Source: Agromyces aurantiacus (GTDB taxonomy: Bacteria; Actinomycetota; Actinomycetes; Actinomycetales; Microbacteriaceae). From it: 64,000 bases of DNA. The notes beneath the pieces are model-generated. The model saw nothing but the letters and a program-made list of their open reading frames with translations. It did not search any database and had not been told where the DNA came from. Both the position numbers and the translations under genes were made by a program. Shown in pieces: positions 1-21,723 of the stretch. The stretch lies in assembly GCF_016907355.1 (NCBI RefSeq), contig NZ_JAFBBW010000001.1, positions 1,426,001 to 1,490,000 of the forward strand, written 5' to 3'. The stretch's first letter is position 1. Each line of letters starts with the position of its first letter.

Positions 1-948
1 ACGCACGTGTCGCTGGCGGGCGACCCGGTCGCCGCAGTGGTGGTGCGGCCGGGCGGCGATTCGGTGCACGTCTTCGCGAACGAGGCCGACCGCATGCTCG
101 CCGAGGAGCTCGGCGACGCCGCCGACCTCGAGGTCGTGCGCGTGCCGTGGCACGAGCCGCTCCTCCCGCCCGGTGCCGAGGGCGGCGCACTCGACGAGGC
201 GGAGGTCGCAGCCGAGCTGCGCGCGGCCCGCGCCTCGCTGCTGCCCGGCGAGCTGGCCCGCTACCGCCGGCTCTGCCGCGAGGTCGCCGAGACGCTGACG
301 GATGCCGCGCTCGCCGCGTCGCCCGACGACACCGAGCGTGCCGTGGCGGCAGGCTTGGCGTTCGACCTCGTGGCGCGCGGGATCGACCCGGTCGTCGTCC
401 TCGTCGCCGGACGCGGCCGGCTCGCCCACCGGCATCCGCTGCCCACCGGTGACCCGCTCGGCGACCGCGCCATGCTCGTCGTCTGCGGGCGCCGGAACGG
501 GCTCATCGCGAACGCGACCCGCTGGGTGCGGTTCGGCCTCACCGACCCGGCCGAGGCACGGTCCATGAGCTGCATCCTGGACGTCGAGGCCGCGTTCCTC
601 GACGCCACGGTGCCCGGCGCGACCCTGGGTGAGGTGCTCGCGGCCGGCACCGCGGCCTACGCCGCGCACGGATTCGACCCGGAGGAGTGGCGGCGCCACC
701 ACCAGGGCGGTGCGGCCGGCTACGCCGGGCGCGACCCGCGCGCGGTGCCCGGCATCGCGGACGTCGTGCAGCCCGGCCAGGCGTTCGCGTGGAACCCGAC
801 CGCGCCGGGCGCGAAGGTCGAGGACACGGTCCTCGTCGGGCCGACGGGCATCGAGGTGCTCACCGTCGACCCGCGCTGGCCCTCGGGGCGGGTCGCGGGG
901 CGGGCACGGCCGGACGAACTGGAGCGCGGGCGGGACGCGCCGCGGTGA
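1..948 (+). CDS. M24-family metallopeptidase-like protein (Xaa-Pro peptidase type), 5' end outside window
   Basis: The reading frame is open from the first base, and the residues before the first GTG (position 7) continue the family-like phrase T-H-V-S-L-A-G, so the gene probably begins upstream of the window. At least 313 residues remain. The layout fits an M24 creatinase/prolidase-like protein: an N-terminal alpha/beta region followed by a pita-bread-like region with RYRRLCREVAETLTDA, LVARGIDPVVVLVAGRGRL, GHDP-like turns and QPGQAFAWNPTAPGAKVEDT near the end. The usual metal ligands are not all obvious, so peptidase activity is doubtful. No partner is visible; the next gene is 30 nt downstream with its own -10 box. 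Confidence 0.65.
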   Translation, partial: THVSLAGDPVAAVVVRPGGDSVHVFANEADRMLAEELGDAADLEVVRVPWHEPLLPPGAEGGALDEAEVAAELRAARASLLPGELARYRRLCREVAETLTDAALAASPDDTERAVAAGLAFDLVARGIDPVVVLVAGRGRLAHRHPLPTGDPLGDRAMLVVCGRRNGLIANATRWVRFGLTDPAEARSMSCILDVEAAFLDATVPGATLGEVLAAGTAAYAAHGFDPEEWRRHHQGGAAGYAGRDPRAVPGIADVVQPGQAFAWNPTAPGAKVEDTVLVGPTGIEVLTVDPRWPSGRVAGRARPDELERGRDAPR

Positions 949-3012: not shown

Positions 3013-3030
3013 TGGGATAGCGCTTTCCCA
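3013..3030. promoter_or_regulatory. LacI-type operator 1 of the GGGAAGCGCTTTCC set
   Basis: TGGGATAGCGCTTTCCCA is an 18-bp palindrome with one mismatched pair. It sits 47 nt before the PmoA-like start and directly after a TACGCT -10-like box (3008-3013). Closely related sites stand at 6915-6932 and 20354-20371. The AAnCGnTT-like core is typical of LacI-family operators. Confidence 0.65.
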
Positions 3031-3077: not shown

Positions 3078-4028
3078 ATGCCCGACCTCCGCATCGACCG
3101 CGACGACGACCGGCTCGCGATCCGGCACGGCGGCGCGGTGCTCGCCGAGTACGTCTTCCGGCCCGAGCACCCGGCGTTCGAGTCGCCGCGGCCGTACTTC
3201 AGCCCGATCCGCACGCTCGGCGGCCAGACGGTGACGCTGTACCGCCCGCACGACCACGTCTGGCACAAGGGCATCGCGTGGTCGCTGCCGGTGGTCGGCG
3301 ACGAGAACTTCTGGGGCGGGCCGACGTACGTGCGCGGGAAGGGGTACGTGCAGCTGCCGAACAACGGCGAACAGCGGCACGTCGGCTTCGACGACGACCC
3401 GCCGGCGGATGGCGCGAGCATCGTCGCCGACGGCGAGCGCCCGGCCCGCGTCATCGAGCGCCTCACGTGGTTGACCCAGGCGGGCGAGGCGATCTTCGAC
3501 GAGCGACGCACGGTCGCGGCATCCAATCTCTCGGACGACGCCTGGCTGCTCGGCTTCGCCACGCGCATGACGAACTCGAGCGACCGCGCCATGCCGATCG
3601 GGTCGCCCACGACCCGCGGACGCGAGAACGCAGGCTACGGCGGCCTCTTCTGGCGCGGACCGCGCTCGTTCACGGGCGGCGCGGTGCTCGCCCCGGGCGT
3701 CGCGGGCGGCGATGAGCTGCGTGGCACGCGCGCGCCGTGGATGGGCTTCACCGGGCGGCACGACGAGACCGACGCCGCCTCGACGGTGGTGATGGTCGAT
3801 GACCCGGCCAACCTGCAGCATCCGCCGCAGTGGTTCGCGCGCAGCTTGGAGTTCGCGTGCCTCTGCCCGGCTCCGTTCTTCAGCGAGGAGCACGTCATCG
3901 AGCCGGGTGCCACGATGTCGCTGCGCTACGGCGTCGTGGTCGCCGACGGCGCCGCCGACCCCGAGCGGGCCGATCGCCTGGCGGGCGCCGCGGCGGCACG
4001 GTTGCCGGGGCTGCTGGGGGCGCCGTGA
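3078..4028 (+). CDS. PmoA-like protein (DUF6807 type)
   Basis: A 316-residue cytoplasmic protein with no signal peptide. It matches the PmoA-like group seen in carbohydrate clusters: IRTLGGQTVTLYRPHDHVWHKGIAWSLPVV, FWGGPTYV, GDELRGTRAPWMGFTGRHD and the late block FFSEEHVIEPGATMSLRYGVVV. The His-rich HDHVWHKG segment (about residues 55-62) resembles the putative metal or substrate site. The biochemical function of this family is not established as far as I know. GAGGAG precedes the ATG. It is the first gene of a four-gene operon with stop-start overlaps, so its job probably concerns the same sugar as the cupin and Gfo/Idh genes. Confidence 0.75.
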   Translation: MPDLRIDRDDDRLAIRHGGAVLAEYVFRPEHPAFESPRPYFSPIRTLGGQTVTLYRPHDHVWHKGIAWSLPVVGDENFWGGPTYVRGKGYVQLPNNGEQRHVGFDDDPPADGASIVADGERPARVIERLTWLTQAGEAIFDERRTVAASNLSDDAWLLGFATRMTNSSDRAMPIGSPTTRGRENAGYGGLFWRGPRSFTGGAVLAPGVAGGDELRGTRAPWMGFTGRHDETDAASTVVMVDDPANLQHPPQWFARSLEFACLCPAPFFSEEHVIEPGATMSLRYGVVVADGAADPERADRLAGAAAARLPGLLGAP

Positions 4029-4780
4029 CCCGCCCGGCCTTTCCGGGCGCGACCTCGATCAGCGCCCTCGCGGTCTACGACGGCGTCGCGCCCGACGGCC
4101 TCGCGGGCGGCGCCCCGCACCTGCACACCGTGTCGGCCGAGGCGTACCTCGTCGTCGCGGGCCACGGGCGCCTGCACACGATCGACGGCGCCGGCACGTT
4201 CGCCGAGCGCCCGCTCGCGCCGGGCGATCTCGTGTGGTTCGCGCCGGGGGTCATCCATCGTGCCGTGAACGACGGCGGGCTCGCCGTGCGGGTCATCATG
4301 CAGAACGCGGGCCTGCCCGAAGCGGGTGACGCGGTCATGACCTTCCCCGACGACGTGCTCGCCGACCCCGGGCGGTACGCGGATGCCGCGGAGCTGCCCG
4401 GCCCGGACGCGTCCGACGTCGACCGGCTCGCTGCCGCGCACGCACGCCGCGACCTCGCGGTCGAGGGCTACCTCGCACTGTTCGGCGACGCCGCGGAGGA
4501 CGGCGGCGCCGTGGACCGCGGGCGCCTCGCGCGGCTGCACGCGCGCGCCGCCGCGCTGGTCCGGCCGCGCGTCCCCGAGTGGCGCGATCGCTGGCGCGAC
4601 GGCGCCGTGGCCGCCGCGCTCGAGACGGGCGAGCGCCTGGACGCGCTCGATGCGGGACGCGATGCCGGCATGGGCGCGGCGGGCGTCGCGGAGGCATCCG
4701 GGGCCCCCGACTTCGGGATGTGCGGCCGGCTGCGCCGCTACGACACGACCCGCCTCGACCCCACCGGAGGAGACCGATGA
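4025..4780 (+). CDS. cupin-domain protein with extra C-terminal domain
   Basis: It starts with GTG 4025 inside the stop of the PmoA-like gene (GTGA) and has 251 residues. The N-terminal half is a cupin with metal-ligand pattern H32-x-H34, E39 and H78 (PHLHTVSAEAYLVVAG, GDLVWFAPGVIHRAVN). The C-terminal half (from about residue 120) is alpha-helical, Arg/Ala-rich and without a family I recognise. Cupins in sugar operons act as isomerases, epimerases or small-molecule sensors; which applies here is unknown. It overlaps the following oxidoreductase gene by 4 nt. Confidence 0.7.
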   Translation: MTRPAFPGATSISALAVYDGVAPDGLAGGAPHLHTVSAEAYLVVAGHGRLHTIDGAGTFAERPLAPGDLVWFAPGVIHRAVNDGGLAVRVIMQNAGLPEAGDAVMTFPDDVLADPGRYADAAELPGPDASDVDRLAAAHARRDLAVEGYLALFGDAAEDGGAVDRGRLARLHARAAALVRPRVPEWRDRWRDGAVAAALETGERLDALDAGRDAGMGAAGVAEASGAPDFGMCGRLRRYDTTRLDPTGGDR

Positions 4781-5871
4781 CCGCACCGACCACCCCGCTC
4801 CGCGCCGCGATCGTCGGCACGGGCGCCATCGCCGATGCGCACGCGCGCGCGATCGGCGCGACGGCCGATGCCGAGCTCGTCGCCGTCGTCGACCGCGACC
4901 CGGCGCGGGCGCAGGCGTTCGCCGATCGCTGGGGCGGACCGGCCGTCGCCGACTCGCTCGACGCGCTGTTCGCCGCCGGCGGCATCGACGTGCTGCACGT
5001 GTGCACCCCGCCCGGCGTGCACGCCGAGCAGGCGATCGCGGCGCTCGACGCCGGCGCGCATGTGATCTGCGAGAAGCCGGCGGCGCTCTCGCTCGACGAG
5101 CTCGACGCGATGGCGCAGGCCGCGTCGCGGAACGACCGCCGGCTCGCCGTCGTGTTCCAGCAGCGCACCGGGACCGCCGCCGCGCACGTCAGGGCCCTGC
5201 TCGGGTCGGGCGCGCTCGGTCGGCCGCTCGTCGCGACGTGCGAGACGCTCTGGTACCGCGATCCCGCGTACTTCGCGGTTCCGTGGCGCGGCAAGTGGGC
5301 GACCGAGGGCGGCGGGCCGACGCTCGGCCTCGGGATCCACCAGATCGACCTGCTCGCGTGGCTCCTCGGCGACTGGGCGAGCGTGCACGGCCGGCTCTGG
5401 CGGCTCGCGCGCGAGACCCAGATGGAGGACGTCTCGACGGCGACCGTCGAGTTCGCGAACGGCACCGTGGCCTCCGTGGTGACGAGCGCCCTCTCGCCCC
5501 GCGAGACGAGTTCCATCCGCATCGACACCGAGCTCGCGACCGTCACGGTCGATCACCTCTACGGGCACGGCCACGAGCATTGGCGCATCACGCCCGCGCC
5601 GCATGTCGACGCGGCCACGTCGGCCGCGTGGGCGCTGCCCGCGAGGGAGGAGCCGAGCGGCCACGATCCGCTCGTGCGCGACATCTACCGGGCCCTCGCC
5701 ACGCGCGGGCCGCTTCCGTCGACGGCGAGCGACCCGGCGCGCTCGTTCGAGATCGTGACCGCGATCTACTCGTCGGCGGCGACGGGCCGCACCGTGACGC
5801 CTGAGACCCTGCGTGCCGACGCCGATCGGCTCCGGAGCCTCGAGAGCCCGATCACCGACCTGCGGCCATGA
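4777..5871 (+). CDS. Gfo/Idh/MocA-family NAD(P)-dependent oxidoreductase
   Basis: This 364-residue protein has an N-terminal Rossmann motif (AIVGTGAIADAHARAI, residues 11-26), the family EKP motif with K100 (VICEKPAAL) and a GIHQID block with H188 and D191, the usual proton-relay positions. The enzymes oxidise or reduce sugar or inositol hydroxyls in the cytoplasm. A GGAGGAG ribosome-binding site lies inside the end of the cupin gene, and the stop overlaps the next ATG. Together with the PmoA-like and ThuA-like genes, this suggests oxidation at a sugar ring carbon; the substrate is unknown. Confidence 0.85.
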   Translation: MTAPTTPLRAAIVGTGAIADAHARAIGATADAELVAVVDRDPARAQAFADRWGGPAVADSLDALFAAGGIDVLHVCTPPGVHAEQAIAALDAGAHVICEKPAALSLDELDAMAQAASRNDRRLAVVFQQRTGTAAAHVRALLGSGALGRPLVATCETLWYRDPAYFAVPWRGKWATEGGGPTLGLGIHQIDLLAWLLGDWASVHGRLWRLARETQMEDVSTATVEFANGTVASVVTSALSPRETSSIRIDTELATVTVDHLYGHGHEHWRITPAPHVDAATSAAWALPAREEPSGHDPLVRDIYRALATRGPLPSTASDPARSFEIVTAIYSSAATGRTVTPETLRADADRLRSLESPITDLRP

Positions 5872-6866
5872 CCGCCGGGGCGCACCCCGGTATCGTCGAC
5901 GCGGCGACCGCCGACGACGCGCTGTTCCACGACCCCGTGCACGACGGCGCGACCGATCCGACCGTCATCCGCCATCAGGTCACGGGGGAGTGGTGGATGT
6001 TCTACACCCAGCGGCGGGCCTCGGTCGACGGGCCAGGCGTCGCCTGGGTGCACGGGAGCCGCATCGGCGTGGCGCGATCGGCAGACGGCGACCGGTGGCG
6101 GTACTCCGGCACCCTCGACGACCTGCGGCTCGGCGGCGGGCCGTCGACGGCCTGGGACGAGACGCACTGGGCCCCCGAGGTGATCCACGACGGCGAGCGG
6201 TACCGCATGTACCTGACGGTGATCGACGGGATCCCCGATCGGTGGGAGGGCCACTCGCGCCGGATCGTCGAGTACGAGAGCGACGACCTCGAGCGCTGGC
6301 GGCTCGTCGGCGACATCCCCCTGAGCTCGGACCGCGTGATCGACGCGTGCGTCGCGCACTGCCCCGACGGGCTGTGGCGGATGTGGTTCAAGGACGAGGC
6401 GGACGGCTCGACGACCTGGGTCGCATCGAGCCCCGACCTCGCGCCGCGGTCGTGGCGCGTCGAGGGCCGTGCGATCGGCGGTCGCCCGCATGAGGGGCCC
6501 AACGTGTTCGAGCTCGGCGGATGGTGGTGGATGCTCGTCGACGAATGGCGCGGCATGGGCGTGTTCCGCTCGCGCGACGCCGTGCGGTGGGTGCGGCAGG
6601 GCGGGCCCGACGACGTGATCCTCGGCGCACCGGGCCGGCGGCGCGGCGACGCCACGTTCGGGCGGCACGGCGACGTCGTCGTCGAGGGCGGCCGCGGCAT
6701 CCTCTTCTACTTCACGCACCCGCACTGGGACGGTTCGGAGCTGGGGCCGACGGATGCCGCGTCCGCGCGCCTCAGCGCCGTGTTCGCGGCGCCGCTCACG
6801 GTCGAGGACGGCGTGCTGCGCTGCGACCGCGACGCTGCGCCGCATCTCGGATCGATCACGAATTGA
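5868..6866 (+). CDS. GH43/GH130-like five-bladed propeller protein
   Basis: A 332-residue protein with no signal peptide. The repeated pattern DPTVIRHQVTGEWWMFYTQR, THWAPEVIHDGERYRMYLTV, DGLWRMWFKDEADGSTTWVA, GPNVFELGGWWWMLVDEWRG looks like the blades of a GH43/GH130-type beta-propeller. Candidate acidic catalytic residues are the Asp of DPTV and the Glu of WAPEV. It could be a hydrolase or phosphorylase acting on an intracellular oligosaccharide. It is the last gene of the operon. Its stop codon overlaps a possible regulator site (6864-6877) of the next promoter. Confidence 0.65.
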   Translation: MTAGAHPGIVDAATADDALFHDPVHDGATDPTVIRHQVTGEWWMFYTQRRASVDGPGVAWVHGSRIGVARSADGDRWRYSGTLDDLRLGGGPSTAWDETHWAPEVIHDGERYRMYLTVIDGIPDRWEGHSRRIVEYESDDLERWRLVGDIPLSSDRVIDACVAHCPDGLWRMWFKDEADGSTTWVASSPDLAPRSWRVEGRAIGGRPHEGPNVFELGGWWWMLVDEWRGMGVFRSRDAVRWVRQGGPDDVILGAPGRRRGDATFGRHGDVVVEGGRGILFYFTHPHWDGSELGPTDAASARLSAVFAAPLTVEDGVLRCDRDAAPHLGSITN

Positions 6867-6877
6867 AACGATTTTTC
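6864..6877. promoter_or_regulatory. second LacI-type site upstream of the 6.9-kb promoter
   Basis: TGAAACGATTTTTC contains the core AAACGATT (AAnCGnTT). It overlaps the stop codon of the preceding gene and lies 9 nt before the -35 box at 6886. Its flanks differ from the GGGAAGCGCTTTCC sites, so a different LacI-family protein may bind here. Confidence 0.35.
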
Positions 6878-6885
6878 CTTCCTGA

Positions 6886-6914
6886 TTGACCCGCGGGGGA
6901 GATGGGGCTATCTT
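6886..6914 (+). promoter_or_regulatory. sigma-70 type promoter of the receptor/permease/fucosidase operon
   Basis: TTGACC (6886-6891), a 17-nt spacer, and TATCTT (6909-6914). This is one of the best-matching promoters in the window. The predicted start of transcription lies inside the adjoining operator at 6915-6932. Confidence 0.7.
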
Positions 6915-6932
6915 TGGGGAAGCGCTTTCCCA
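6915..6932. promoter_or_regulatory. LacI-type operator 2 of the GGGAAGCGCTTTCC set
   Basis: TGGGGAAGCGCTTTCCCA is an 18-bp near-perfect palindrome placed directly after the -10 box, where a bound repressor would block initiation. It matches the sites at 3013 and 20354. Confidence 0.7.
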
Positions 6933-6982
6933 GAAGTGCCACCCCGCACCAGGCAGACAGAGACGTTTCCGGGAGGACAACG

Positions 6983-8293
6983 ATGTTCAACATTCGCACG
7001 CGTCGCGCGGCACTCGCCGCCGCCGCTGTCACGGCGAGCGCGGCGCTCGTGCTCACGGGCTGCTCCGGCGGCTCCGCGCCGGCCGCGACCTACGACCCCG
7101 ACGAGAAGGTCACGCTCGACTTCGCCTTCTGGGGCAACGACGTCCGCGCCGAGATGTACGACAAGGCCATCGCCGCCTTCAACGAGGAGTACCCGAACAT
7201 CACGGTGAACACCTCGTTCCTCGGCTTCCCCGAGTACTGGGAGAAGCGGCAGACCGAGGCCGCCGGCGGCGGCCTGCCCGACGTGATGCAGTTCGACTAC
7301 TCCTACCTGCGCCAGTACTCCGAGAACGGCCTGCTGCTCGACCTCACGCCGTACCTCGGCAACATCATCGACACCGAGCCGCTCAGCGACCAGATCCTGG
7401 ACATCGGCGTCGTCGGCGACGAGACCACCGGCATCCCGACCTCGACCAACGCGTGGGGCATGTACACCAACCCCACGCTGCTCGAGGAGGTCGGGGTCGA
7501 CGAGTTCGCCGGCGGCGACTGGGAGGACTACAACGCCTGGATGAAGGAGGTCACCGACGCGGCGGCCGCCAAGGGCGTCGAGCTCTGGGGCGGCACCGAC
7601 TACACGGGCCGCATCCAGAACTTCGAGATCCAGCAGCGCGCGAAGGGCGAGGACCTCTTCACCGAGGACGGCGAGCCGAACTTCACCAAGGAGGACCTCG
7701 CGGCCTTCTGGGAGCAGGGCGACGGGATCCGCACCGACGGCACCGTGATCGGCCAGCAGCGCCTCGAGGAGGTCAACCCGCTGTCGGGCTTCGACGCGGC
7801 CCTCACCGCGAGCGAGCTCACGTGGGACAACTTCGGCGCCGGCTACCTCGGCAACCTCGGCGAGGGCTACACCGAGCTCGGCCTGGTCGCCCCGCCCGTG
7901 ACCGAGGACGGTGCGAAGGACCTCTACCTCAAGCCGTCCATGCTGCACTCCATCGCCGCGACGACCAAGCACCCTGAGGCGGCCGCGACGCTGCTCAACT
8001 ACCTCGTGAACGCACCCGAGGTCGGTGAGGCCTTCGGCACCAACCGCGGCATCCCCGCCTCGGAGACCCAGCTCGAGGGCGCCAAGCTCGACCCGCTCGG
8101 CCAGCAGATCGCCGACTACGAGGCCTCCATCTCGGACCGCCTCGGCGACGCCCCGCCCGTGCCGATCGTCGGCTACGGCACGCTCGAGGAGAAGTTCCGC
8201 CAGATCGGCCAGGAGCTCGGGTACGGCACCCTGACCGTCGATGAGGCCGTCGACCAGTTCTTCGCCGAGATGGACGTCGTCCTGAACCAGTAG
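6983..8293 (+). CDS. ABC sugar-importer substrate-binding lipoprotein (receptor 1)
   Basis: A 436-residue extracellular lipoprotein. It has a basic N-terminus, a hydrophobic stretch and lipobox LTGC with Cys27 as the lipid-attachment residue. The mature part is a cluster-1 (MalE/UgpB-type) binding protein: VTLDFAFWGNDVRAEMYDKAI, PEYWEKRQTEAAGGGLPDVMQFD and the late block ASISDRLGDAPPVPIVGYGTLEEKF. GGGAGG precedes ATG 6983. It is a clear paralogue of the receptor at 20419, sharing whole blocks such as YWEKR, TEAAGGGLPDV and DAPPVP. It heads an operon with two permeases. Confidence 0.9.
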   Translation: MFNIRTRRAALAAAAVTASAALVLTGCSGGSAPAATYDPDEKVTLDFAFWGNDVRAEMYDKAIAAFNEEYPNITVNTSFLGFPEYWEKRQTEAAGGGLPDVMQFDYSYLRQYSENGLLLDLTPYLGNIIDTEPLSDQILDIGVVGDETTGIPTSTNAWGMYTNPTLLEEVGVDEFAGGDWEDYNAWMKEVTDAAAAKGVELWGGTDYTGRIQNFEIQQRAKGEDLFTEDGEPNFTKEDLAAFWEQGDGIRTDGTVIGQQRLEEVNPLSGFDAALTASELTWDNFGAGYLGNLGEGYTELGLVAPPVTEDGAKDLYLKPSMLHSIAATTKHPEAAATLLNYLVNAPEVGEAFGTNRGIPASETQLEGAKLDPLGQQIADYEASISDRLGDAPPVPIVGYGTLEEKFRQIGQELGYGTLTVDEAVDQFFAEMDVVLNQ

Positions 8294-8300
8294 GAGCCTT

Positions 8301-8333
8301 CGGGTCCGGGCCCCGACCGGGGGCCCGGACCCG
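8301..8333. terminator. strong hairpin between receptor and first permease
   Basis: A perfect 14-bp stem (8301-8314 with 8320-8333) around the 5-nt loop GACCG, without a T-run. Inside an operon such a structure usually protects the upstream receptor mRNA or partly terminates, giving more receptor than permease. Confidence 0.6.
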
Positions 8334-8365
8334 GAGTAGCCTCAGGACCGAACGGGAGAATGACT

Positions 8366-9358
8366 GTGAGCACCACCCTGACGAGAGCGATCGTCACGGC
8401 CGACGAGAGCGGCACGCGCCGCCCCGGCCGTCGCGGCCCCGACGTCCCCGCGCGAGCGGGCATCAAGGCCCGGAACCGCCGGGAGACGGCGACCGGCTAC
8501 ACCTTCCTCCTGCCGTGGATCATCGGCTTCGTCGGCCTCACGCTCGGTCCGATGCTGTACTCGCTGTACCTGGCGTTCACCAAGTACAACCTGTTCACCG
8601 AGCCGAAGTGGATCGGCTTCGACAACTTCACCCGGATGTTCACCGAGGACCCGGTCTACATCCAGTCGGTGCAGATCACGCTCGTGTACGTGCTGGTCGG
8701 CACCCCGATCAAGCTCGCCGCCGCGCTGGCGGTGGCGATGCTGCTGAACTACCGCGACCGCGGCTCGGCGTTCTTCCGCTCGTCGTTCTACGCCCCGTCC
8801 CTGATCGGCGCATCGGTCTCGGTCGCGATCGTGTGGCGCGCGATGTTCTCGACCGACGGCCCCGTCGACAACACGCTGAGCTTCTTCGGCATCGAGATCG
8901 GCGGATGGGTCGGCAATGTCGCCATGGTGCTGCCGATGATGATCCTGCTGGCGGTCTGGCAGTTCGGTGCCCCGATGGTGATCTTCCTCGCGGGCCTCAA
9001 GCAGATCCCGAAGGAGCTCTACGAGGCCGCCGAGGTCGACGGCGCCGGCCCGGTGCGCAAGTTCCGGTCGGTCACGTTCCCGATGCTCTCGAGCGTGATC
9101 TTCTTCAACCTGCTGCTCGAGCTGATCAACGCGTTCCAGGTGTTCGCGTCGGCGTACATCATCTCCAACGGCTCCGGCGGGCCCGCCGGCATGACCAACT
9201 TCTACACCGTCTACCTCTACAAGCGCGGCTTCGCCGACCTGCAGATGGGCTACGCCGCCGCCATGGCGTGGGTCCTCGTGATCGTCGTCGCGATCATCGC
9301 CGCGCTCCTGTTCAAGACCCAGAAGTCGTGGGTCCACTACGCGGGAGAGAACCGATGA
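8366..9358 (+). CDS. ABC sugar-importer permease, MalF/UgpA type
   Basis: About 330 residues with six membrane segments, the first at YTFLLPWIIGFVGLTLGPMLY. The cytoplasmic EAA loop reads EAAEVDGAGPVRKF and contacts the ATPase subunit. I chose GTG 8366, which has GGGAG at a 7-nt spacing; ATG 8360 is possible but lies almost on the ribosome-binding site. It overlaps the second permease by 4 nt. No ATPase gene is present, so a shared MsiK-type ATPase encoded elsewhere is likely. Confidence 0.9.
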   Translation: MSTTLTRAIVTADESGTRRPGRRGPDVPARAGIKARNRRETATGYTFLLPWIIGFVGLTLGPMLYSLYLAFTKYNLFTEPKWIGFDNFTRMFTEDPVYIQSVQITLVYVLVGTPIKLAAALAVAMLLNYRDRGSAFFRSSFYAPSLIGASVSVAIVWRAMFSTDGPVDNTLSFFGIEIGGWVGNVAMVLPMMILLAVWQFGAPMVIFLAGLKQIPKELYEAAEVDGAGPVRKFRSVTFPMLSSVIFFNLLLELINAFQVFASAYIISNGSGGPAGMTNFYTVYLYKRGFADLQMGYAAAMAWVLVIVVAIIAALLFKTQKSWVHYAGENR

Positions 9359-10275
9359 GCACCGCAACCAGTGAGATCGCCCGCTCCGAGTTCCTCGAGG
9401 TCGAGCTCCAGCCCGAGCCCGCCGGCCGTCGCCGCATCAAGCGCAAGACCGTCAACACCGTCATCTGGTTCGTGGTGCTGCTCGCCGTGACCGCCGTCGT
9501 GCTCTACCCGCTGGTCTGGCTGGTCTTCGCGACGTTCAAGCCGTCGAGCGAGTTCGGCCAGAACCCCGGGCTGCTGCCCGACCAGCCGACGATCGACAAC
9601 TACTTCAAGGTGCTCGAGGGCATCGGCGGCGTGCCGCTGTGGCGGTTCTTCGCGAACTCGCTGCTCATCGCGGTGCTCGCGGTGGTCGGCACGTTGTTCT
9701 CGTCGGCCCTCGCCGCCTACGCGTTCGCGCGCGTGCAGTTCAAGGGCGTCGGCATCCTGTTCGCCGCGATGATCGGCACGCTGCTGCTGCCGTTCCACGT
9801 CGTGATCATCCCGCAGTACATCATGTTCCAGAAGCTCGAGCTGGTGGACACGTACTGGCCGCTGATCCTGCCGAAGTTCCTCGCGACCGAGGCGTTCTTC
9901 GTCTTCCTCATCGTCCAGTTCATCCGCAACATCCCGCGCGACATGGATGAGGCGGCCAAGATCGACGGCGCCGGCCATTGGCGCATCTTCGTCTCGATCA
10001 TCCTGCCGCTGATCAAGCCCGCCCTGATCACGAGCGCGATCTTCACGTTCATCTGGACCTGGAACGACTTCCTCGGCCCGCTGCTCTACGTCAACAGCCC
10101 CGAGCTCTACCCGCTCCCGGTCGCACTCCGCCTCTACAACGACCAGACCTCGTCGTCCGACTACGGCGCGACCGTCGCGGTGTCGTTCCTGGCGCTGCTG
10201 CCGATCCTGATCTTCTTCGTCGTCTTCCAGCGGTTCCTGGTCGACGGCGTCGCGACCCAGGGTCTCAAGGGCTAG
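9355..10275 (+). CDS. ABC sugar-importer permease, MalG/UgpE type
   Basis: A 306-residue protein with a cytoplasmic N-terminus of about 35 residues and six membrane segments, starting with TVIWFVVLLAVTAVVLYPL. The EAA loop is EAAKIDGAGHWRIF. The late block FIWTWNDFLGPLLYVN is typical of the MalG subfamily. It pairs with the permease at 8366 to form the channel. The start ATG 9355 overlaps the previous stop. Confidence 0.9.
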   Translation: MSTATSEIARSEFLEVELQPEPAGRRRIKRKTVNTVIWFVVLLAVTAVVLYPLVWLVFATFKPSSEFGQNPGLLPDQPTIDNYFKVLEGIGGVPLWRFFANSLLIAVLAVVGTLFSSALAAYAFARVQFKGVGILFAAMIGTLLLPFHVVIIPQYIMFQKLELVDTYWPLILPKFLATEAFFVFLIVQFIRNIPRDMDEAAKIDGAGHWRIFVSIILPLIKPALITSAIFTFIWTWNDFLGPLLYVNSPELYPLPVALRLYNDQTSSSDYGATVAVSFLALLPILIFFVVFQRFLVDGVATQGLKG

Positions 10276-10284
10276 GGCGAGCGG

Positions 10285-10959
10285 ATGTCGCGGACGAGCG
10301 AGCGGGCGGCGCGACGCGCCGAGCGATCGGGCTCCGGCCCGGTGCGTTCCGGCGCGGCGCCCGCGCGCTTCCCGGGCGCGACGAGCGCGTTCGGGCTGCT
10401 CGGCGAGGTCCTCCTGATCGGCCTGCTGGTCACCCTCGTCGCGCTGCCCGTCGTGACCCTGCCGGTCGCGCTCGCGGCCGGCGTCCGGCACCTTCGGCGG
10501 TTCCTGAAGGCCGAGGCGTCGTCGATGGGCGCGTTCTGGGCCGACGTGCGTGCGGGCCTGGCCGGCGGGATCGCCGTCGGCGCGGCATCCGTCGTGCTCG
10601 TGCTCGTGCTGCTCGTCGACCTCGACCTCGCGAACAGCGGCGCGCTGCCGGGCGGCCCGCTCATCGGGGCCGTCGGCTGGGTCGGGCTCGCCGCGGCGGC
10701 GCTCGCGCTCTTCACGGCGGCGGGGCGCTGGACGCCCGCGCGGGGGTGGCGGCGTGCCCTGCGATCCGTGCCGCGTTCGGTCGGCGCCGACCCGATCGGC
10801 GCCGCGTACCTCGTGGCGACCGCCGTGTTCGCGGTCGTCGTGACCTGGCAGCTGCTGCCGCTCATCGTGCCCGCGCTCGGCTGCGTCGCGCTCGCGATCG
10901 TCGCGGTGCCCGAGCGGCCCCGTCGCACCCCGGCGGACGCGGCGTCCGGCGACGCGTGA
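10285..10959 (+). CDS. YesL-like (DUF624-type) membrane protein
   Basis: A 224-residue membrane protein with about four or five hydrophobic segments. The block FGLLGEVLLIGLLVTLVALP, then VVTLPVALAAGVRHLRRFLKAEAS and FWADVRAGLAGGI resembles YesL/DUF624 proteins, which often sit next to sugar importers and glycoside hydrolases. Their function is unresolved; an accessory role in importer assembly or regulation is a guess. It lies between the permeases (9 nt upstream) and the fucosidase, with a GTGA overlap downstream. Confidence 0.6.
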   Translation: MSRTSERAARRAERSGSGPVRSGAAPARFPGATSAFGLLGEVLLIGLLVTLVALPVVTLPVALAAGVRHLRRFLKAEASSMGAFWADVRAGLAGGIAVGAASVVLVLVLLVDLDLANSGALPGGPLIGAVGWVGLAAAALALFTAAGRWTPARGWRRALRSVPRSVGADPIGAAYLVATAVFAVVVTWQLLPLIVPALGCVALAIVAVPERPRRTPADAASGDA

Positions 10960-12161
10960 CCGCGTCGGGCCGGCCGCTGCCCGCCTGGGCGCGCGATGCG
11001 ACGCTCGGCATCTTCGTGCACTGGGGCGCCTACTCGGTGCCCGCCTGGGCGGAGCCGACGGGCGCGCTCGGCGCCGTGCCCGACGACGAGTGGTTCGCGC
11101 ACAACGCGTATGCCGAGTGGTACGGCAACACGATCCGGCTCGAGGGCTCGCCCGCGGCCGAGCACCACGCGCGCGAGCACGGCGGCCGCCCCTACGACGC
11201 GTTCCTCGACGAGTGGCGCGCCGAGGCCTGCGACCCCGGCGACTGGGCGAGGCTGTTCGCGGCCGTGGGCGCCGACTACGTCGTGCCGACCACCAAGCAC
11301 CACGACGGCATCGCGCTCTGGGACGCCCCGGGCTCGGGCGGCCTGACCACCGTCGCCCGCGGCCCGCGCCGCGACCTCGTCGCGCCGCTCGCCGAGGCGG
11401 TCCGAGCCGAGGGCCTGCGGTTCGGCGTCTACTACTCGGGCGGCCTGGACTGGGCGTTCGCCGACCTGCCTCCGCTGCGATCCAGCGCCGACGTCGAGCG
11501 CCTCCGGCCGACGGATGCCGCGTACGCCGCCTACGCGTACGGTCACGTCGCCGACCTGATCGACCGATTCCGTCCCGACCTGATCTGGAACGACATCGAC
11601 TGGCCCGACGCCGCCAAGCGGCCCGGTCTCCACTCGATCGACGCGCTGCTCGCGCACTACCGCGACGTGGTGCCCGAGGGCATCGTGAACGACCGCTGGG
11701 GCGCCGACGTGTGGGACTACCGCACGAGCGAGTACGACCACGACGCCCACCACGAGGCGTCCGTCGGCTGGGAGCACTGCCGCGGCCTCGGCTTCTCGTT
11801 CGGCTTCAACCGCGTCGAGGATGCCGCGCTCACGATGACGCCGCGTGAGCTCGCCCGCCTGTGGGCCGACGTCGTCGCGCGCGGCGGGCGGCTGCTGCTG
11901 AACGTCGGCCCCGACGCATCCGGTCGCATCCCCGACGTGCAGCGGCGCACGCTCGAGGGCGTCGCGCCGTGGCTCACGGCCGTGAAGCCCCGCACGCTCG
12001 GCCGGTCGGTGCTCGCGCCGGGCGAGGTCGAGGTGCCGGATGCCGCGTGGTGGCGCGCCTGGCGTACGCCCGGGCACGTGGTCGTCGTGACCGACGCGCC
12101 CGATGCCGCGCCGCGCGTGCGCGACGGGTCGCCGGTCGTCGTGGTGCCGTTGCCCGGCTGA
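10956..12161 (+). CDS. GH29 alpha-L-fucosidase, cytoplasmic
   Basis: A 401-residue protein with the GH29 N-terminal phrase LGIFVHWGAYSVPAWAE, then DYVVPTTKHHDGIALWD and FGVYYSGGLDW. The nucleophile region reads LIWNDIDWPD with D213 as the likely nucleophile, and GGRLLLNVGPDASGRIP closes the catalytic domain. No signal peptide is present, so it should remove terminal fucose (or a related residue) from imported oligosaccharides. GTG 10956 overlaps the stop of the YesL-like gene. It is somewhat short because the usual C-terminal beta-domain is reduced to about 60 residues. Confidence 0.85.
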   Translation: MTASGRPLPAWARDATLGIFVHWGAYSVPAWAEPTGALGAVPDDEWFAHNAYAEWYGNTIRLEGSPAAEHHAREHGGRPYDAFLDEWRAEACDPGDWARLFAAVGADYVVPTTKHHDGIALWDAPGSGGLTTVARGPRRDLVAPLAEAVRAEGLRFGVYYSGGLDWAFADLPPLRSSADVERLRPTDAAYAAYAYGHVADLIDRFRPDLIWNDIDWPDAAKRPGLHSIDALLAHYRDVVPEGIVNDRWGADVWDYRTSEYDHDAHHEASVGWEHCRGLGFSFGFNRVEDAALTMTPRELARLWADVVARGGRLLLNVGPDASGRIPDVQRRTLEGVAPWLTAVKPRTLGRSVLAPGEVEVPDAAWWRAWRTPGHVVVVTDAPDAAPRVRDGSPVVVVPLPG

Positions 12162-12242: not shown

Positions 12243-14570
12243 TCACCCGACCGCGCGCCAGACCGTCGCGGTGCGCCCGGCGAGCCGGTCGAGTGAGCCG
12301 AGCGGGCCGTCGTGCGCGCGGCGCCGTGCGGCGGCGGGCTCGGGCAGGTGGACCTCACTGTCGGGATGCAGCGAGAGGATCCGCAGCTCGACCCGCGAGT
12401 CCGCGGCGACGCCCGCGGCATCGAGGTCGATGAGCCACGGTGTGCCGTCCCAGAACCGGTCGGCGACCGTGCGGCCGTCGACCTCGAGCGTCGCGACGTC
12501 GCCCGCCCAGCGCACCTCGAGCAGGCGCCGGACGCCGGCCCGCACGCCGCCGAGCCCGCCCAACCGGTGGGCGGATGCCGCGGCGTCGAGCTCGTCGGGC
12601 GACGGGGCGGCACGCCGCGCGGCCGTGCCGCCGTACGAGGGCTTCGGCATCCCGGCGCCTCGGACGAGCTCGGCGGTCACGTCGAGCCCCGCGACCTCCT
12701 CGCCGGCGAACGCGACAGGCGCGAACCGACCCGTCGTCGGGTCGTAGCGGTGCACGTCGGGCGCCTCCCCGGAACGGGCGACGAGCACGTCGCCGTCGAG
12801 TCGCAGCGGGGCAGCCGAGCGCAGCAGCATCCGTTCGCCCGAGGGGGCGTCGAGCACCCACACGTCGGCCGCCGCCTCGGCGGGGAGGATGAGCACGTCG
12901 AGCGCCGCAGCCCCGGCGCGCACGCGATGGACCGACTCGCCGCGGTCGACCGCGGCGTCCAGGAGCACGGGGGCGGACGCGCCATCCGCCCGCACCGCCG
13001 CCGTCGGCGTCACGCCCGCCTCGGCGAGCAGCACGAGCGTCGGCACCGCGCCCTCGAGCACGGTGAGCACCGACGCCGTCGCCCACTCCACGACGCCGCC
13101 CCCGAGCGCGAGCCCGAGCGGCCAGCGCGCGACGGTCCCGGCCGGGATCGCCAGCGGCGGCCGGCCGGCGGACGGCACGAGCACCGGTCCCGAGGCCAGG
13201 TCGACCTCGAACCGCACGCCCTCCACGCGCGACAGCGGCTCGAACGGCTGGTGGTGGCCGAGGAACAGGAACCCCGCGTCGCCCTCGGCACGAACCGCCC
13301 AGCGGAGGGTCTCGCGGTCGTCGTCGCCCCGCGGCATCCGCTCGGGCAGGCGCGCCGTCATCGGCGCGAGGCGCTCGCCGACGGCGGCGAGGAACGCATG
13401 CTGGATCCGCAGCGCCGCGTGGCTCGGCGCGACCGCGCCCGCGGCGCCGACCGGCGCGTGGAAGTCGTAGTCGAACCGCGGCAGGTCGTTCGGGTAGCCC
13501 GTGTCGAGCGACTCCTGCAGCCCGTCGGCCGGGTTCAGCCCGCCCGCGTACATGTAGTAGCCCTGCCAGTTCGAGCCCGAGCCGAGCTTCGCGTTCGCGA
13601 CCGCGGCGAGGTCGAGCGCCGACGGCAGCGGGCGCCGGTGGTACGCGGCGGCCATGCCGCCGCCGAGCTCGCACGTCGCGACCGGGAAATCGGGCGAGCC
13701 CGACGCGCCCGCCCGCGGGACGGAGACCGCGTCGGCCGGCGCCTCGCCGCCGCGCACGTCGGCCCCGATACCGGGATCGTCCCAGTCGCGGGAGAAGCGG
13801 AAGTGCGCACGGAAGCTCGAGGGCCACGGCGCATCCGCGTCGATCCAGAACCCGTCGGCGTACCCGCCGAACACGGGCATCACGACCCCGGGCGGCAGTT
13901 CGGCGCCGTCCCACGCGGTCGCCGTCCAGATCGGCGCCGACAGGCCGGCCTCGCGTGCCAGCCCGACGAGCGTCGCGAGGTGACCGGGCCGGTCGATGAG
14001 CTCGTTCTCGACCTGGATGCCGACGATGGGTCCGTCGGGGCCGCACAGCGGGGCGAGCTCGCGAGCGACTGCGGCGTACCATCCGCGCGCCAGGTCGAGG
14101 TAGGCGGGATCGTCGGTGCGATGGCGCACCGGCGCCGCCGCCACCCAGTCGGGGAACCCGCCGTTGCGCACCTCGCCGTGGCACCACGGCCCGAGCCGCA
14201 CGACGACGTCGAGCCCGACGTCGGCCGCGAGCCGCACGAACGCCGCCGCGTCGAGCCCGCCGTCGAAGCGCACGCGGCCGCGCTCGGGCTCGTGGTGGAT
14301 CCAGATGAGGTAGGTCGAGACGACCGTGACCCCGCCCGATCGCATGAGCTGCAGCCGCTCCCGCCACTCGCGCCGCGGCACGCGCGAGAAGTGCAGCTCG
14401 CCCGACACCGGGATCGCCGGGCGGCCGTCGAGCTCGACGTACCGGTTCGTCAGCGCGATGCGGTGGTGGCGGTCCCGCTCGTTCGACATGGCCGGGCGGG
14501 TGAGCGGCGGGCGCTCCTCCGCAGGCGCGAGACGCAACGGCGTCGGCTCGGACGGGTCGTGGGGGGTCAT
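12243..14570 (-). CDS. GH35 beta-galactosidase
   Basis: A 775-residue protein. The GH35 barrel begins near residue 45 (PAIPVSGELHFSRVP, then TYLIWIHHEPERGRVRF and VVVRLGPWCHGEVRNGGFPD). E190 in QVENE is the probable acid/base and E301 in CELGGG the probable nucleophile. About 350 C-terminal residues form beta-sandwich-like domains. It has no signal peptide. The start ATG at 14570 overlaps the stop of the upstream TIM-barrel hydrolase. Beta-1,2-, 1,3- or 1,4-galactoside preference cannot be read; removal of galactose from xyloglucan or galactan oligomers is the likely role. Confidence 0.85.
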   Translation of the reverse strand: MTPHDPSEPTPLRLAPAEERPPLTRPAMSNERDRHHRIALTNRYVELDGRPAIPVSGELHFSRVPRREWRERLQLMRSGGVTVVSTYLIWIHHEPERGRVRFDGGLDAAAFVRLAADVGLDVVVRLGPWCHGEVRNGGFPDWVAAAPVRHRTDDPAYLDLARGWYAAVARELAPLCGPDGPIVGIQVENELIDRPGHLATLVGLAREAGLSAPIWTATAWDGAELPPGVVMPVFGGYADGFWIDADAPWPSSFRAHFRFSRDWDDPGIGADVRGGEAPADAVSVPRAGASGSPDFPVATCELGGGMAAAYHRRPLPSALDLAAVANAKLGSGSNWQGYYMYAGGLNPADGLQESLDTGYPNDLPRFDYDFHAPVGAAGAVAPSHAALRIQHAFLAAVGERLAPMTARLPERMPRGDDDRETLRWAVRAEGDAGFLFLGHHQPFEPLSRVEGVRFEVDLASGPVLVPSAGRPPLAIPAGTVARWPLGLALGGGVVEWATASVLTVLEGAVPTLVLLAEAGVTPTAAVRADGASAPVLLDAAVDRGESVHRVRAGAAALDVLILPAEAAADVWVLDAPSGERMLLRSAAPLRLDGDVLVARSGEAPDVHRYDPTTGRFAPVAFAGEEVAGLDVTAELVRGAGMPKPSYGGTAARRAAPSPDELDAAASAHRLGGLGGVRAGVRRLLEVRWAGDVATLEVDGRTVADRFWDGTPWLIDLDAAGVAADSRVELRILSLHPDSEVHLPEPAAARRRAHDGPLGSLDRLAGRTATVWRAVG

Positions 14571-15895
14571 GCGTCGGGTCCCTCCGTGATGAGTGCGGTC
14601 ATGCGGCGCTGCCACGCGACGTCGGCCCACATCGGATGGTGCGGGGCTGCGTTCGAGCACGCCACCACGCCCCACACCCCGTGCGCGAGGGCGGTGCGGA
14701 TGCCGTGCTCGGCGAGTTCGAGGCCGAACCCCGTCTCCTCGAACCGGCCGTCGCGCGGCGTGTAGCCGACCCATCCCTCGCCCACCACCGCGGGAACGGC
14801 GCGCCATCGGGCCCACTCCGCGATCGCGACGACCCGCGACTCCACCTCGCGGAGCATGACCTCGCGGTACGGGTCGAGGTGCGCGACGAGCCAGGCATCC
14901 CACTTCGCCGGGTCGATCCAGTCGTAGCCGTAGAGCATCTGGTCGGTGATCACGGTCGCCTCCAGCTTCCAGTGGGCGGGGCGACCGTACTCGGCGAAGG
15001 ATGGCGCGTCCGCGCGCAGCAGCGTCCGCAGCTCGGCATTGGGGAAGCCCTCGGTGCCCTCGCTGCGGATGTCGATGCGCCGCTGGAGCGCGTCGAGCAC
15101 GCCGTACGAGTAGACGTGGAACTGCGCGACGCCGAGCGCCGGCGACACCCGGTGCATCGCCAGGTGCGGCGGCTTGCCGTAGCTCGCGGTGACCAGCTGC
15201 CCCGGATGCCGCGCCCCGAGCCATCGGATGGCGGCCTCACCGTCCTGCTCGATCGGCGGGAGGATCGAGAAGTCGACCTCGTTGTGCAGCTCGGTGAACG
15301 CGATCGCGTCGGCGAGGCCCGCCGCCTCGAGGTCGGTGAGCAGCCGGTCGAACGCCTCGGCGAGCACGCGGTGCCGCTCGTCGACGGGCACCGCGTCGAT
15401 CGCGCGGAACCAGGCCGGGTCGGCGGCGAATGCCGGGGACTGCTGGTACTCCCAGCTCGCGAGGACCACGACGACGCCGTGGCGCTTCGCGGCATCGACG
15501 AGTTCGAACAGGCGGGACCGCACGTCGAGGCGGTACCCGCCCGGAGCGTCGTACCAGCGCGTGCGCTCGCCGTAGTACCCGCCGACGGGCGTCGCGCCGA
15601 GGCCCTCGATCTCGAGGTCGCGCGCGAGCGCGTCGAGCCCCAGCTCCGGTCCGCCCGCGACCAGCAGCGGGGCCGCGCAGATCCGCACGGCGTCGTACCC
15701 GCGCTCGACGGTCTCGGCCATCGCGCGGTCGAGGTCCTCGAACGGCTCACCGGCGCCCGCCCGCGTGTACCACGAGAAGTCCCACAGGCAGATCGCGAGG
15801 CGCCCGGGCAGGTGCGCGGGCACCGGTCCCGTCGGGGCGGCGTCGGGCACGCCCGCGAGGGGCGTGCCGAGGTAGCGCGTGCCGGGCTCGCTCAC
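14567..15895 (-). CDS. cellulase-like TIM-barrel glycoside hydrolase
   Basis: A 442-residue protein without a signal peptide. The barrel starts at RLAICLWDFSWYTRA. E206 in FTELHNEVD and E373 in VGEGWVGYTP are placed like the acid/base and nucleophile of clan-A enzymes. I also see VASWEYQQSP and AQFHVYSYG on barrel strands. It resembles cellulase-like (GH5-related) proteins, but I cannot assign a named family. GTG 15895 overlaps the stop of the DUF5107 gene and its own stop overlaps GH35, so all three are translationally coupled. Confidence 0.6.
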   Translation of the reverse strand: MSEPGTRYLGTPLAGVPDAAPTGPVPAHLPGRLAICLWDFSWYTRAGAGEPFEDLDRAMAETVERGYDAVRICAAPLLVAGGPELGLDALARDLEIEGLGATPVGGYYGERTRWYDAPGGYRLDVRSRLFELVDAAKRHGVVVVLASWEYQQSPAFAADPAWFRAIDAVPVDERHRVLAEAFDRLLTDLEAAGLADAIAFTELHNEVDFSILPPIEQDGEAAIRWLGARHPGQLVTASYGKPPHLAMHRVSPALGVAQFHVYSYGVLDALQRRIDIRSEGTEGFPNAELRTLLRADAPSFAEYGRPAHWKLEATVITDQMLYGYDWIDPAKWDAWLVAHLDPYREVMLREVESRVVAIAEWARWRAVPAVVGEGWVGYTPRDGRFEETGFGLELAEHGIRTALAHGVWGVVACSNAAPHHPMWADVAWQRRMTALITEGPDA

Positions 15896-20353: not shown

Positions 20354-20371
20354 TCGGGAAGCGCTTTCCAA
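20354..20371. promoter_or_regulatory. LacI-type operator 3 of the GGGAAGCGCTTTCC set
   Basis: TCGGGAAGCGCTTTCCAA is palindromic over its central 12 bp (GGAAGCGCTTCC with one offset) and matches the operators at 3013 and 6915. It starts one base after the -10 box. Confidence 0.65.
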
Positions 20372-20418
20372 CCCACCCCCAGGCGCACCCACCCGACGAC
20401 GACGACGGAGGACCACGC

Positions 20419-21708: not shown

Positions 21709-21723
21709 CCCCGAGCCCCATCA

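What the first reader, a model, noticed from the sequence alone, without database searches (positions are those of the whole stretch)
3078..6866. Four-gene PmoA-like/cupin/Gfo-Idh/propeller operon: a candidate undescribed sugar-oxidation route
All four genes overlap by 4 nt or less, so they are a translational unit. They combine a family without known function (PmoA-like), a cupin with an unrecognised C-terminal domain, a Gfo/Idh dehydrogenase and a GH43-like propeller. Family knowledge (ThuA/ThuB-type 3-keto glycoside pathways) makes an oxidation-first glycoside cleavage plausible. I know of no described pathway with exactly these parts.
Basis: inference. Interest (0 to 1): 0.7.

Follow-up and report, generated by a model that had tools for sequence, protein, structure and literature searches.

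The report
Conserved sugar-oxidation operon with unknown enzyme
A soil bacterium carries a small group of genes, kept together in many relatives, that appears to take in plant sugar chains and break them down using an enzyme family whose job seems not yet to have been worked out.

Summary
The four genes are real: three 4-nt overlaps, + strand, in an Agromyces-like genome. 'PmoA' is DUF6807 (PF14100). The 'GH43-like propeller' matches a solved GH159 galactofuranosidase/arabinofuranosidase (E 2.5e-71, 46% identity, catalytic residues kept). The cupin keeps its metal ligands and has an unassigned C-terminal part. The Gfo/Idh protein keeps Lys and His but has Gly where Asp is usual (recalled).

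The association is conserved. Of 104 loci with a called stand-alone DUF6807, 93 have Gfo/Idh and 74 the cupin in the same gene run (controls 32 and 0 of 1192 genes). DUF6807 is also fused to Gfo/Idh and, separately, to LacI repressors. GH159 is a lineage-specific addition. A LacI-type operator precedes both this operon and the adjacent ABC-transporter operon. Upstream lie an aldarate-type pathway, an M24-fold protein that has lost most metal ligands, and a Gfo/Idh-DUF993-TIM-barrel set, each also found near DUF6807 elsewhere.

The sugar-oxidation idea is partly supported. Oxidation-first bond cleavage is plausible but untested; the known eliminase and 3-keto hydrolase families tested are not in the operon.

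The parts
3014..3029 (.). LacI-type operator-like palindrome (GGGATAGCGCTTTCCC), 48 nt before the DUF6807 start
   Evidence: within 2 mismatches upstream of DUF6807 in 22 of 25 chosen sources
3078..4028 (+). DUF6807 (PF14100, old name PmoA), 316 aa; invariant in 19 sequences: D59, H60, H63, W79-G80-G81, E142, R144, P177, R193, W252, R255 among others
4025..4780 (+). cupin, 251 aa; H34, E39, H78 invariant and H32 nearly so (cupin metal-ligand pattern, recalled); unassigned C-terminal part with conserved GMCGxL
4777..5871 (+). Gfo/Idh/MocA dehydrogenase, 364 aa; EKP lysine K100 and H188 kept, Gly at the position of the usual catalytic Asp (recalled)
5868..6866 (+). [quoted passage not shown]
6916..6931 (.). 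second operator of the same type, before the transporter operon
6983..8293 (+). ABC sugar-binding protein (SBP_bac_1), lipoprotein-like N-terminus by eye
8360..9358 (+). ABC sugar permease
9355..10275 (+). ABC sugar permease
10342..10959 (+). small protein without a Pfam match that travels with the transporter
10956..12161 (+). GH29 alpha-L-fucosidase family protein
1..948 (+). C-terminal part of an M24-fold protein (the gene starts upstream of the window); four of five metal ligands replaced; next to DUF6807 in several relatives

Best explanation
This is the Agromyces version of a widespread sugar-oxidation module made of Gfo/Idh, DUF6807 and a cupin, serving an imported plant-type oligosaccharide. 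Proposed working: the ABC transporter (6983-10275) brings in an oligosaccharide. GH29 and GH159 trim terminal alpha-L-fucosyl and alpha-L-arabinofuranosyl (or beta-D-galactofuranosyl) residues. The Gfo/Idh enzyme oxidises a ring hydroxyl of a remaining sugar unit with NAD(P)+, perhaps at C3. DUF6807 then acts on the resulting keto-sugar (bond cleavage, epimerisation or lactone chemistry), and the metal cupin isomerises or hydrates the product. A LacI-type repressor controls this operon and the transporter together. Shown by sequence: gene unit, families, GH159 catalytic residues, shared operator-like sites, conserved association and fusions. Inferred: every chemical step of the dehydrogenase, DUF6807 and cupin, their order, the position oxidised, the repressor's role and the natural substrate.
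For: Of 104 loci with a called stand-alone DUF6807, Gfo/Idh is in the same gene run in 93, the cupin in 74, both in 67; among 1192 other genes of the same loci outside that run: Gfo/Idh 32, cupin 0. Of 164 junctions between DUF6807 and a close same-strand neighbour, 116 are exactly -4 nt. The order DUF6807-cupin-Gfo/Idh-GH159 occurs in 10 loci: Agromyces, Demequina, Cryobacterium, Microbacterium. Gfo/Idh-DUF6807 fusions occur in 4 distinct loci. A haloarchaeal plasmid has the Gfo/Idh-DUF6807 pair. GH159: 132 of 289 aligned residues identical to 7ZEI; catalytic D/D/E in 16 of 16 aligned proteins, one locus counted twice. Operator-like site before SBP in 23 of 23 and before DUF6807 in 22 of 25 chosen sources; 65 of 3000 random windows of the same loci. 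Best PDB match of the cupin profile: glucose-6-phosphate isomerase, weak (0.0022). Of 55 PDB sequences matching the Gfo/Idh at E<=1e-10, the best are 3q2i/3q2k 'dehydrogenase/oxidoreductase' (5.7e-39, 8.7e-38); glucuronide-3-dehydrogenase 8tdi (1.3e-22) and DgpA (6.2e-22) are among the next, as are inositol and glucose-fructose enzymes. Enzymes of xylan and arabinose breakdown sit beside the module in some loci: GH10 in 3 of 80 scanned operon neighbours from 46 loci; a protein with an alpha-L-arabinofuranosidase C-terminal domain on the opposite strand in one cluster of 9 loci; an annotated endo-1,4-beta-xylanase and an arabinofuranosidase on a Streptomyces plasmid.
Against: No fold or known activity for DUF6807: no PDB sequence matches its profile at E<=10 and structure prediction was off. 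DUF6807 is also fused to LacI-type regulators in 7 loci, which fits a sensing role as well as an enzyme. Its partner Gfo/Idh is not always of one subtype: by a rough motif test 66 of 104 operons have only the GIHQ type, 24 only another, 3 both, 11 none; 6 of the 24 (L080-L085) are in fact 68-79% identical to the window protein and missed by the motif, the other 18 are of a different subtype. One fixed substrate is therefore unlikely. The Gfo/Idh lacks the usual catalytic Asp. 11 of 104 operons lack Gfo/Idh and 30 lack the cupin. In L052 a Gfo/Idh-GH159 pair lies 4.2 kb from the next DUF6807-Gfo/Idh pair.
Confidence: 0.45

Rival explanations
1. Aldose route: the Gfo/Idh is a sugar 1-dehydrogenase acting on released monosaccharide (L-arabinose, L-fucose, galactose or a uronate); DUF6807 is a lactonase or mutarotase; the acids go into the neighbouring SDR-KdgD-MR/MLE-ALDH pathway to 2-oxoglutarate. 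No glycosidic bond is cut by oxidation.
For: Upstream in the same genome lie an SDR, a keto-deoxy-galactarate-dehydratase-like protein (PDB 4ur7, 1.3e-53), an MR/MLE-type protein (L-talarate/galactarate dehydratase among its best PDB matches) and an ALDH homologue; three or more of these four are in 21 of 115 loci. GH159 and GH29 would release free sugars. Gfo/Idh aldose 1-dehydrogenases exist (NCBIfam Gfo6 hit, 63.1 vs cut-off 350).
Against: 94 of 115 loci lack that pathway within the stretch read. The pathway already carries its own SDR.
Confidence: 0.25
2. Epimerisation route as in the E. coli ycj cluster: the Gfo/Idh makes a keto-glycoside, DUF6807 or cupin epimerises it, and it is reduced back, so an unusual sugar unit becomes an ordinary one for normal hydrolases.
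For: A second, different Gfo/Idh with DUF993 and an AP_endonuc_2 TIM-barrel protein is linked in 18 of 115 loci (two or more of the three genes) and lies upstream in this genome. YcjQ and YcjS (dehydrogenases) and YcjR (isomerase) are described in PMC11543891 (passages). The cupin's best, weak PDB match is a sugar-phosphate isomerase.
Against: Only one Gfo/Idh in the four-gene operon; the TIM-barrel protein is in another operon about 17 kb upstream.
Confidence: 0.15
3. DUF6807 is not an enzyme of the path but a sugar-sensing or scaffolding domain that modulates the dehydrogenase and the regulator.
For: Fusions to LacI-type regulators in 7 loci.
Against: Invariant polar residues D59, H60, H63, E142, R144, R193, R255 across 19 diverse sequences look catalytic or metal-binding; in 104 of 115 loci a free-standing copy was called, mostly with a 4-nt overlap to a neighbour.
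Confidence: 0.1

Closest known systems
3-keto-glycoside oxidation-elimination-hydration-reduction operons (A. tumefaciens GlycDH/OGE/HYD/Gfo, PUE puerarin operon, levoglucosan operon; PMC10628242, passages read)
   Same: Compact operon around an oxidoreductase acting on glycosides; a Gfo oxidoreductase is present in the A. tumefaciens operon
   Different: There two 'sugar phosphate isomerase/epimerase' proteins act as eliminase and presumed hydratase; this operon has DUF6807 and a cupin instead
Bacteroides glycoside/disaccharide 3-dehydrogenases and the 3-keto-disaccharide hydrolase domain (NCBIfam BT_2158/BT_2159; PF06439)
   Same: Gfo/Idh fold
   Different: BT_2158 21.6 vs 750 bits, BT_2159 20.5 vs 650; PF06439 not found in this genome
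GH159 (Ch_Gaf159A, PDB 7ZEI; PMC9278983, passages read)
   Same: Match over residues 18-323, 46% identity; D19, D142, E190 and H244 conserved
   Different: Actinobacterial, in an operon with DUF6807; activity not tested
E. coli ycj cluster (YcjQ/YcjR/YcjS; PMC11543891, passages read)
   Same: ABC importer, LacI-type repressor, sugar dehydrogenases and isomerase together
   Different: Phosphorylases instead of GH29/GH159; no DUF6807 among the genes named in the passages read
Lac161 soil cosmid (PMC5342196, passages and one section read)
   Same: A PF14100 gene (ORF9) beside a five-bladed propeller beta-galactosidase (ORF10) in a putative operon
   Different: Assigned to Chthoniobacter; ORF10 is 63.7 kDa and DUF377-like, not shown to be GH159; ORF9 itself untested in what I read

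Membership tests
GH159 | Sequence similarity over the domain to a characterised member | tested here: met
   7ZEI Ch_Gaf159A, E 2.5e-71, residues 18-323 of 332; 132 of 289 identical
GH159 | Catalytic D19, D142, E190 (mutants inactive in PMC9278983) | tested here: met
   D30, D159, E209; 16 of 16 rows, one duplicate locus
GH159 | Activity on beta-D-Galf or alpha-L-Araf | not testable with these tools
   needs assay
DUF6807 / PF14100 | Pfam gathering score | tested here: met
   259.2 vs 27 bits
Inositol 2-dehydrogenase IolG | TIGR04380 equivalog cut-off | tested here: not met
   108.3 vs 355 bits
Bacteroides-type glycoside 3-dehydrogenases (BT_2158/BT_2159 families) | NCBIfam cut-off | tested here: not met
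   21.6 vs 750 and 20.5 vs 650 bits
3-keto-glycoside eliminase pathway | Known cleaving or hydrating family (AP_endonuc_2 or PF06439) in the operon | tested here: not met
   none in the genes at 3078-12161; PF06439 not found in the genome; among genes scanned in this genome, AP_endonuc_2 only at L151:3081-3980 and window 27779-28966
3-keto-glycoside eliminase pathway | C3 oxidation of a glycoside by the dehydrogenase | not testable with these tools
   needs enzyme assay
Gfo/Idh/MocA | Rossmann domain, EKP lysine, catalytic His | tested here: met
Gfo/Idh/MocA | Asp of the K-D-H triad (recalled) | tested here: not met
   Gly (24) or Ser (4) in 28 of 28 close rows, duplicates included
M24 metallopeptidase | Five metal ligands D, D, H, E, E (recalled; compared with the 6xmr alignment) | tested here: not met
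   C/T, N/S, G, N, and E kept, in 22 rows, four of them duplicate loci

The most novel reading that the evidence does not exclude
Gfo/Idh, DUF6807 and the cupin form a new, independently evolved oxidation-first route for breaking or remodelling glycosidic sugar units, in which DUF6807 is a new class of keto-glycoside lyase, hydrolase or epimerase. The module can be tuned by swapping dehydrogenases, by adding hydrolases such as GH159, and by fusing DUF6807 to LacI repressors. In Agromyces it is one of three linked modules, with a metal-free M24-fold protein as a further unknown enzyme of the same pathway.
Probability: 0.22. Interest if true: 0.78.

Novelty: new variant of a known kind. Interest (0 to 1): 0.5.

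Why it matters
DUF6807 is a large family: one search found 2936 proteins at E<=1e-3 among the 7998 candidates that it scored, and a scan of one genome per species found 567 encoding stretches; it reaches archaea. Part of the public annotation still names it PmoA, after methane oxidation, and two searches of open PMC papers for its names showed no function for it in what I saw of them. The conserved partnership, two kinds of fusion and a recognisable GH159 partner turn 'unknown' into a concrete assay: which sugar does the paired Gfo/Idh oxidise, and what does DUF6807 do to the product. An answer would help to re-annotate thousands of genes.

Tried and rejected
2. Profile-profile comparison of DUF6807 with Aldose_epim, DUF4432, DUF5107, GH35, M24 and the operon's own families gave nothing, but the positive control (Aldose_epim vs DUF4432) also failed, so it says nothing.
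3. Methane oxidation ('PmoA') was set aside: the label is an old name of PF14100. One search found three papers with its names; I opened passages of two (PMC5342196, a neighbour gene; PMC10971088, the DUF number only), the third (PMC10291797) was seen in the listing only. One search found 27 papers, 15 listed, which by title concern methane or other gas oxidation or soil communities; none was opened.
4. GH43 was rejected in favour of GH159.
5. IolG-type inositol dehydrogenase not supported by the curated cut-off.
6. A link of Lac161_ORF10 (PMC5342196) to the window propeller was considered; size and family differ, so it is a lead only.
7. A single substrate was sought from neighbours: GH10 genes in 3 loci, an arabinofuranosidase-domain protein in 9, an aldarate-type pathway in 21 of 115. 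Glucuronoarabinoxylan and arabinogalactan-protein side chains both fit (recalled chemistry); neither is proven.
8. A cupin search in viral contigs found no relative.
9. Of five plasmid records with a DUF6807 match three were read; H1 and H4 were not.

Limits of the counts: genes were called with a script of my own. L141 and L144 gave no gene calls; they stay in the 115 but not in the 104. Nine more loci had no stand-alone DUF6807 call. Loci are related to each other and biased to close relatives (best 80 of 567 kept).

Literature limits: only open-licence PMC papers were searched. DUF6807/PF14100/PmoA names; keto-glycoside paths; GH159; GH165/Lac161; uronate plus M24; Ycj. The roles of cupin and Gfo/Idh motif residues, the M24 ligand pattern and plant polysaccharide composition are recalled and come from no call.


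Full report
WHAT IS THERE. The window lies at 1426001-1490000 of a single-contig 3.88 Mb genome. The best named relatives of the first gene are Agromyces. The four genes are at 3078-4028, 4025-4780, 4777-5871 and 5868-6866, all + strand; each junction is a 4-nt overlap. None shows an obvious export signal by eye, while the next gene (6983-8293) is a sugar-binding protein with a lipoprotein-like start, followed by two permeases, a small protein without a Pfam match and a GH29 protein. The pathway is therefore probably cytoplasmic and fed by the transporter (inference).

THE FOUR PROTEINS. Gene 1 is DUF6807, 259 bits against a cut-off of 27. In 19 diverse sequences D59, H60, H63, W79-G81, E142, R144, P177, R193, W252 and R255 are among 21 invariant positions. 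No PDB sequence matches its profile at E<=10. Gene 2 is a cupin with H34, E39 and H78 invariant and H32 nearly so in 62 sequences, and a conserved GMCGxL near the C-terminus. Its only PDB matches at E<=0.01 are two glucose-6-phosphate isomerase sequences (0.0022 and 0.0049). Gene 3 is Gfo/Idh; of 55 PDB sequences at E<=1e-10 the best are 3q2i and 3q2k (5.7e-39, 8.7e-38); glucuronide-3-dehydrogenase, DgpA, inositol dehydrogenases and glucose-fructose oxidoreductase follow. It reaches none of the 11 NCBIfam cut-offs listed for it. Its EKP lysine and H188 are kept in 28 of 28 close rows; where other family members have Asp (recalled) there is Gly (24) or Ser (4). Gene 4 reaches Pfam GH43 only marginally, but matches GH159 Ch_Gaf159A, PDB 7ZEI, at 2.5e-71 over 18-323. 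D19, D142 and E190, whose mutants were inactive (PMC9278983, passages), correspond to D30, D159 and E209 here, and H244 to H267. D30, D159 and E209 are kept in 16 of 16 rows, one locus counted twice. The GH159 enzymes studied there cleave pNP-beta-D-galactofuranoside and, more weakly, pNP-alpha-L-arabinofuranoside.

CONSERVATION. In the family, 58 of 299 genomes have a DUF6807 relative; in a thin draw from the phylum, 7 of 149, this genome included. A scan of one genome per species gave 567 encoding stretches of 588 pattern hits, of which the best 80 were kept, so the set is biased to close relatives. With 40 stretches and five duplicate loci removed, 115 loci were read; two of them (L141, L144) gave no gene calls and nine more no stand-alone DUF6807, leaving 104. 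Gfo/Idh lies in the same run of genes (gaps up to 100 nt) in 93, the cupin in 74, both in 67. Among 1192 other genes of the same loci, outside that run and not themselves of these families, the figures are 32 and 0. The loci are related to each other, so no probability is claimed. Of 164 junctions of DUF6807 with a close same-strand neighbour 116 are exactly -4 nt, 57 with the cupin and 55 with Gfo/Idh. The full order DUF6807-cupin-Gfo/Idh-GH159 is in L031, L071, L072, L075, L076, L080, L084, L086, L090 and L093; GH159 follows Gfo/Idh without cupin in L087, L097 and L134. The other 91 of the 104 operons have no GH159, and in L052 a Gfo/Idh-GH159 pair stands apart from DUF6807. Five of 72,556 plasmid records matched; of the three read, Paenarthrobacter and Streptomyces have Gfo/Idh-type oxidoreductase, DUF6807 and cupin in a row, and the archaeon Halomontanus rarus has the pair. 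Of eight further stretches from the phylum draw, seven show a Gfo/Idh match next to DUF6807 and one (L199) does not.

FUSIONS. Of 11 distinct long DUF6807 proteins (13 rows, two duplicates), 4 carry a Gfo/Idh and 7 a LacI-type regulator at the N-terminus (five rows checked by Pfam). The Gfo/Idh fusion supports a shared substrate. The LacI fusion is unexplained.

PARTNER SUBTYPES. By a rough motif test 66 of 104 operons have only a GIHQ-type Gfo/Idh, 24 only another, 3 both, 11 none. Six of the 24 (L080-L085) are 68-79% identical to the window protein and were missed by the motif; the other 18 hold a different subtype. DUF6807 thus works beside more than one kind of dehydrogenase.

REGULATION. 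A palindrome of the LacI type lies at 3014-3029, 6916-6931 and 20355-20370: 6 matches on two strands against 1.08 expected, largest shuffle 4. In 25 chosen sources (window plus 24 loci) it is within 2 mismatches before DUF6807 in 22 and, in the 23 that have the SBP, before it in all 23; before the M24 gene in 0 of 11; in random 270-nt windows of the loci, real sites included, 65 of 3000. Exceptions before DUF6807: L087, L093, L056.

SURROUNDINGS. Upstream of the window (L151) are a LacI gene overlapping the M24 gene and, divergent, an SDR, a KdgD-like, an MR/MLE, an ALDH and an MFS gene. KdgD-type, tested on the relative L079: NF002958 384.9 vs cut-off 278, but TIGR03249 270.7 vs 373.95; the window genome's own copy: PDB 4ur7, 1.3e-53. 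The SDR has one PDB match at E<=1e-12, a short-chain dehydrogenase not named as uronate dehydrogenase. Further upstream is a Gfo/Idh-DUF993-AP_endonuc_2 set. Three or more of the SDR-KdgD-MR/MLE-ALDH genes are in 21 of 115 loci, two or more of the second set in 18, both in 7. The M24 protein is in 17 of 115, 14 of these with the first set (Fisher 1.8e-10, relatedness ignored). In all 22 aligned M24 rows (four duplicates) four of five metal ligands are replaced.

READING. Association, fusions, coupling and shared operators make it likely that Gfo/Idh, DUF6807 and cupin act on one sugar path. GH159 and GH29 suggest arabinofuranosyl, galactofuranosyl and fucosyl residues. GH10 genes sit among the operon neighbours of L045, L048 and L050: 3 of 80 proteins scanned. 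The list had 85; four were left out for length and one by oversight, and one arabinofuranosidase-domain protein (L117) was added by hand, so the call scanned 81. Glucuronoarabinoxylan or arabinogalactan-protein side chains would fit; this is inference. The described oxidation-elimination operons use other protein families for the cleaving steps (PMC10628242, passages), so this operon is not a member, though it may work alike.

VERDICT. Real, conserved and, in the papers searched, undescribed as far as I saw them; the mechanism is open. Interest 0.5.

Noticed in passing
window 1-948 and L151:17845-18948: M24-fold protein with four of five metal ligands replaced (C/T, N/S, G, N), overlapping a LacI gene and linked to an aldarate-type pathway and DUF6807 in relatives; probably not a peptidase.
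   Followed up: partly
L039, L040, L041, L042, L061, L064, L065: DUF6807 fused to the C-terminus of LacI-type transcription factors, an unexplained combination of a presumed enzyme domain and a repressor.
   Followed up: partly
L151:3078-6480; also L081-L083, L085, L111, L122: Gfo/Idh-DUF993-AP_endonuc_2 gene set, often divergent from DUF6807 loci; I know of no function for DUF993.
   Followed up: partly
L151:10999-16677: MFS, ALDH, MR/MLE, KdgD-like and SDR genes: an aldarate-type route next to the DUF6807 region; the SDR's specificity is unclear.
   Followed up: partly
window 12243-19182 (-): GH35, cellulase-like (PF12876) and DUF5107-TPR genes; homologues of the last two also lie beside DUF6807 in L074.
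   Followed up: no
window 20355-25696: Second sugar operon behind an operator of the same type: SBP, GH42, ThuA-type protein, glycerate kinase.
   Followed up: no
window 10333-10411: ARAGORN calls a tRNA-Gly that overlaps the start of a called protein gene (10342-10959); probably a false call.
   Followed up: no
L107:6333-10232; similar-sized genes in L105, L110, L112: Large proteins (1300-1354 aa) directly after the cupin in Nonomuraea; the one scanned (L107) has beta-helix, carboxypeptidase-regulatory and cadherin-like domains.
   Followed up: no
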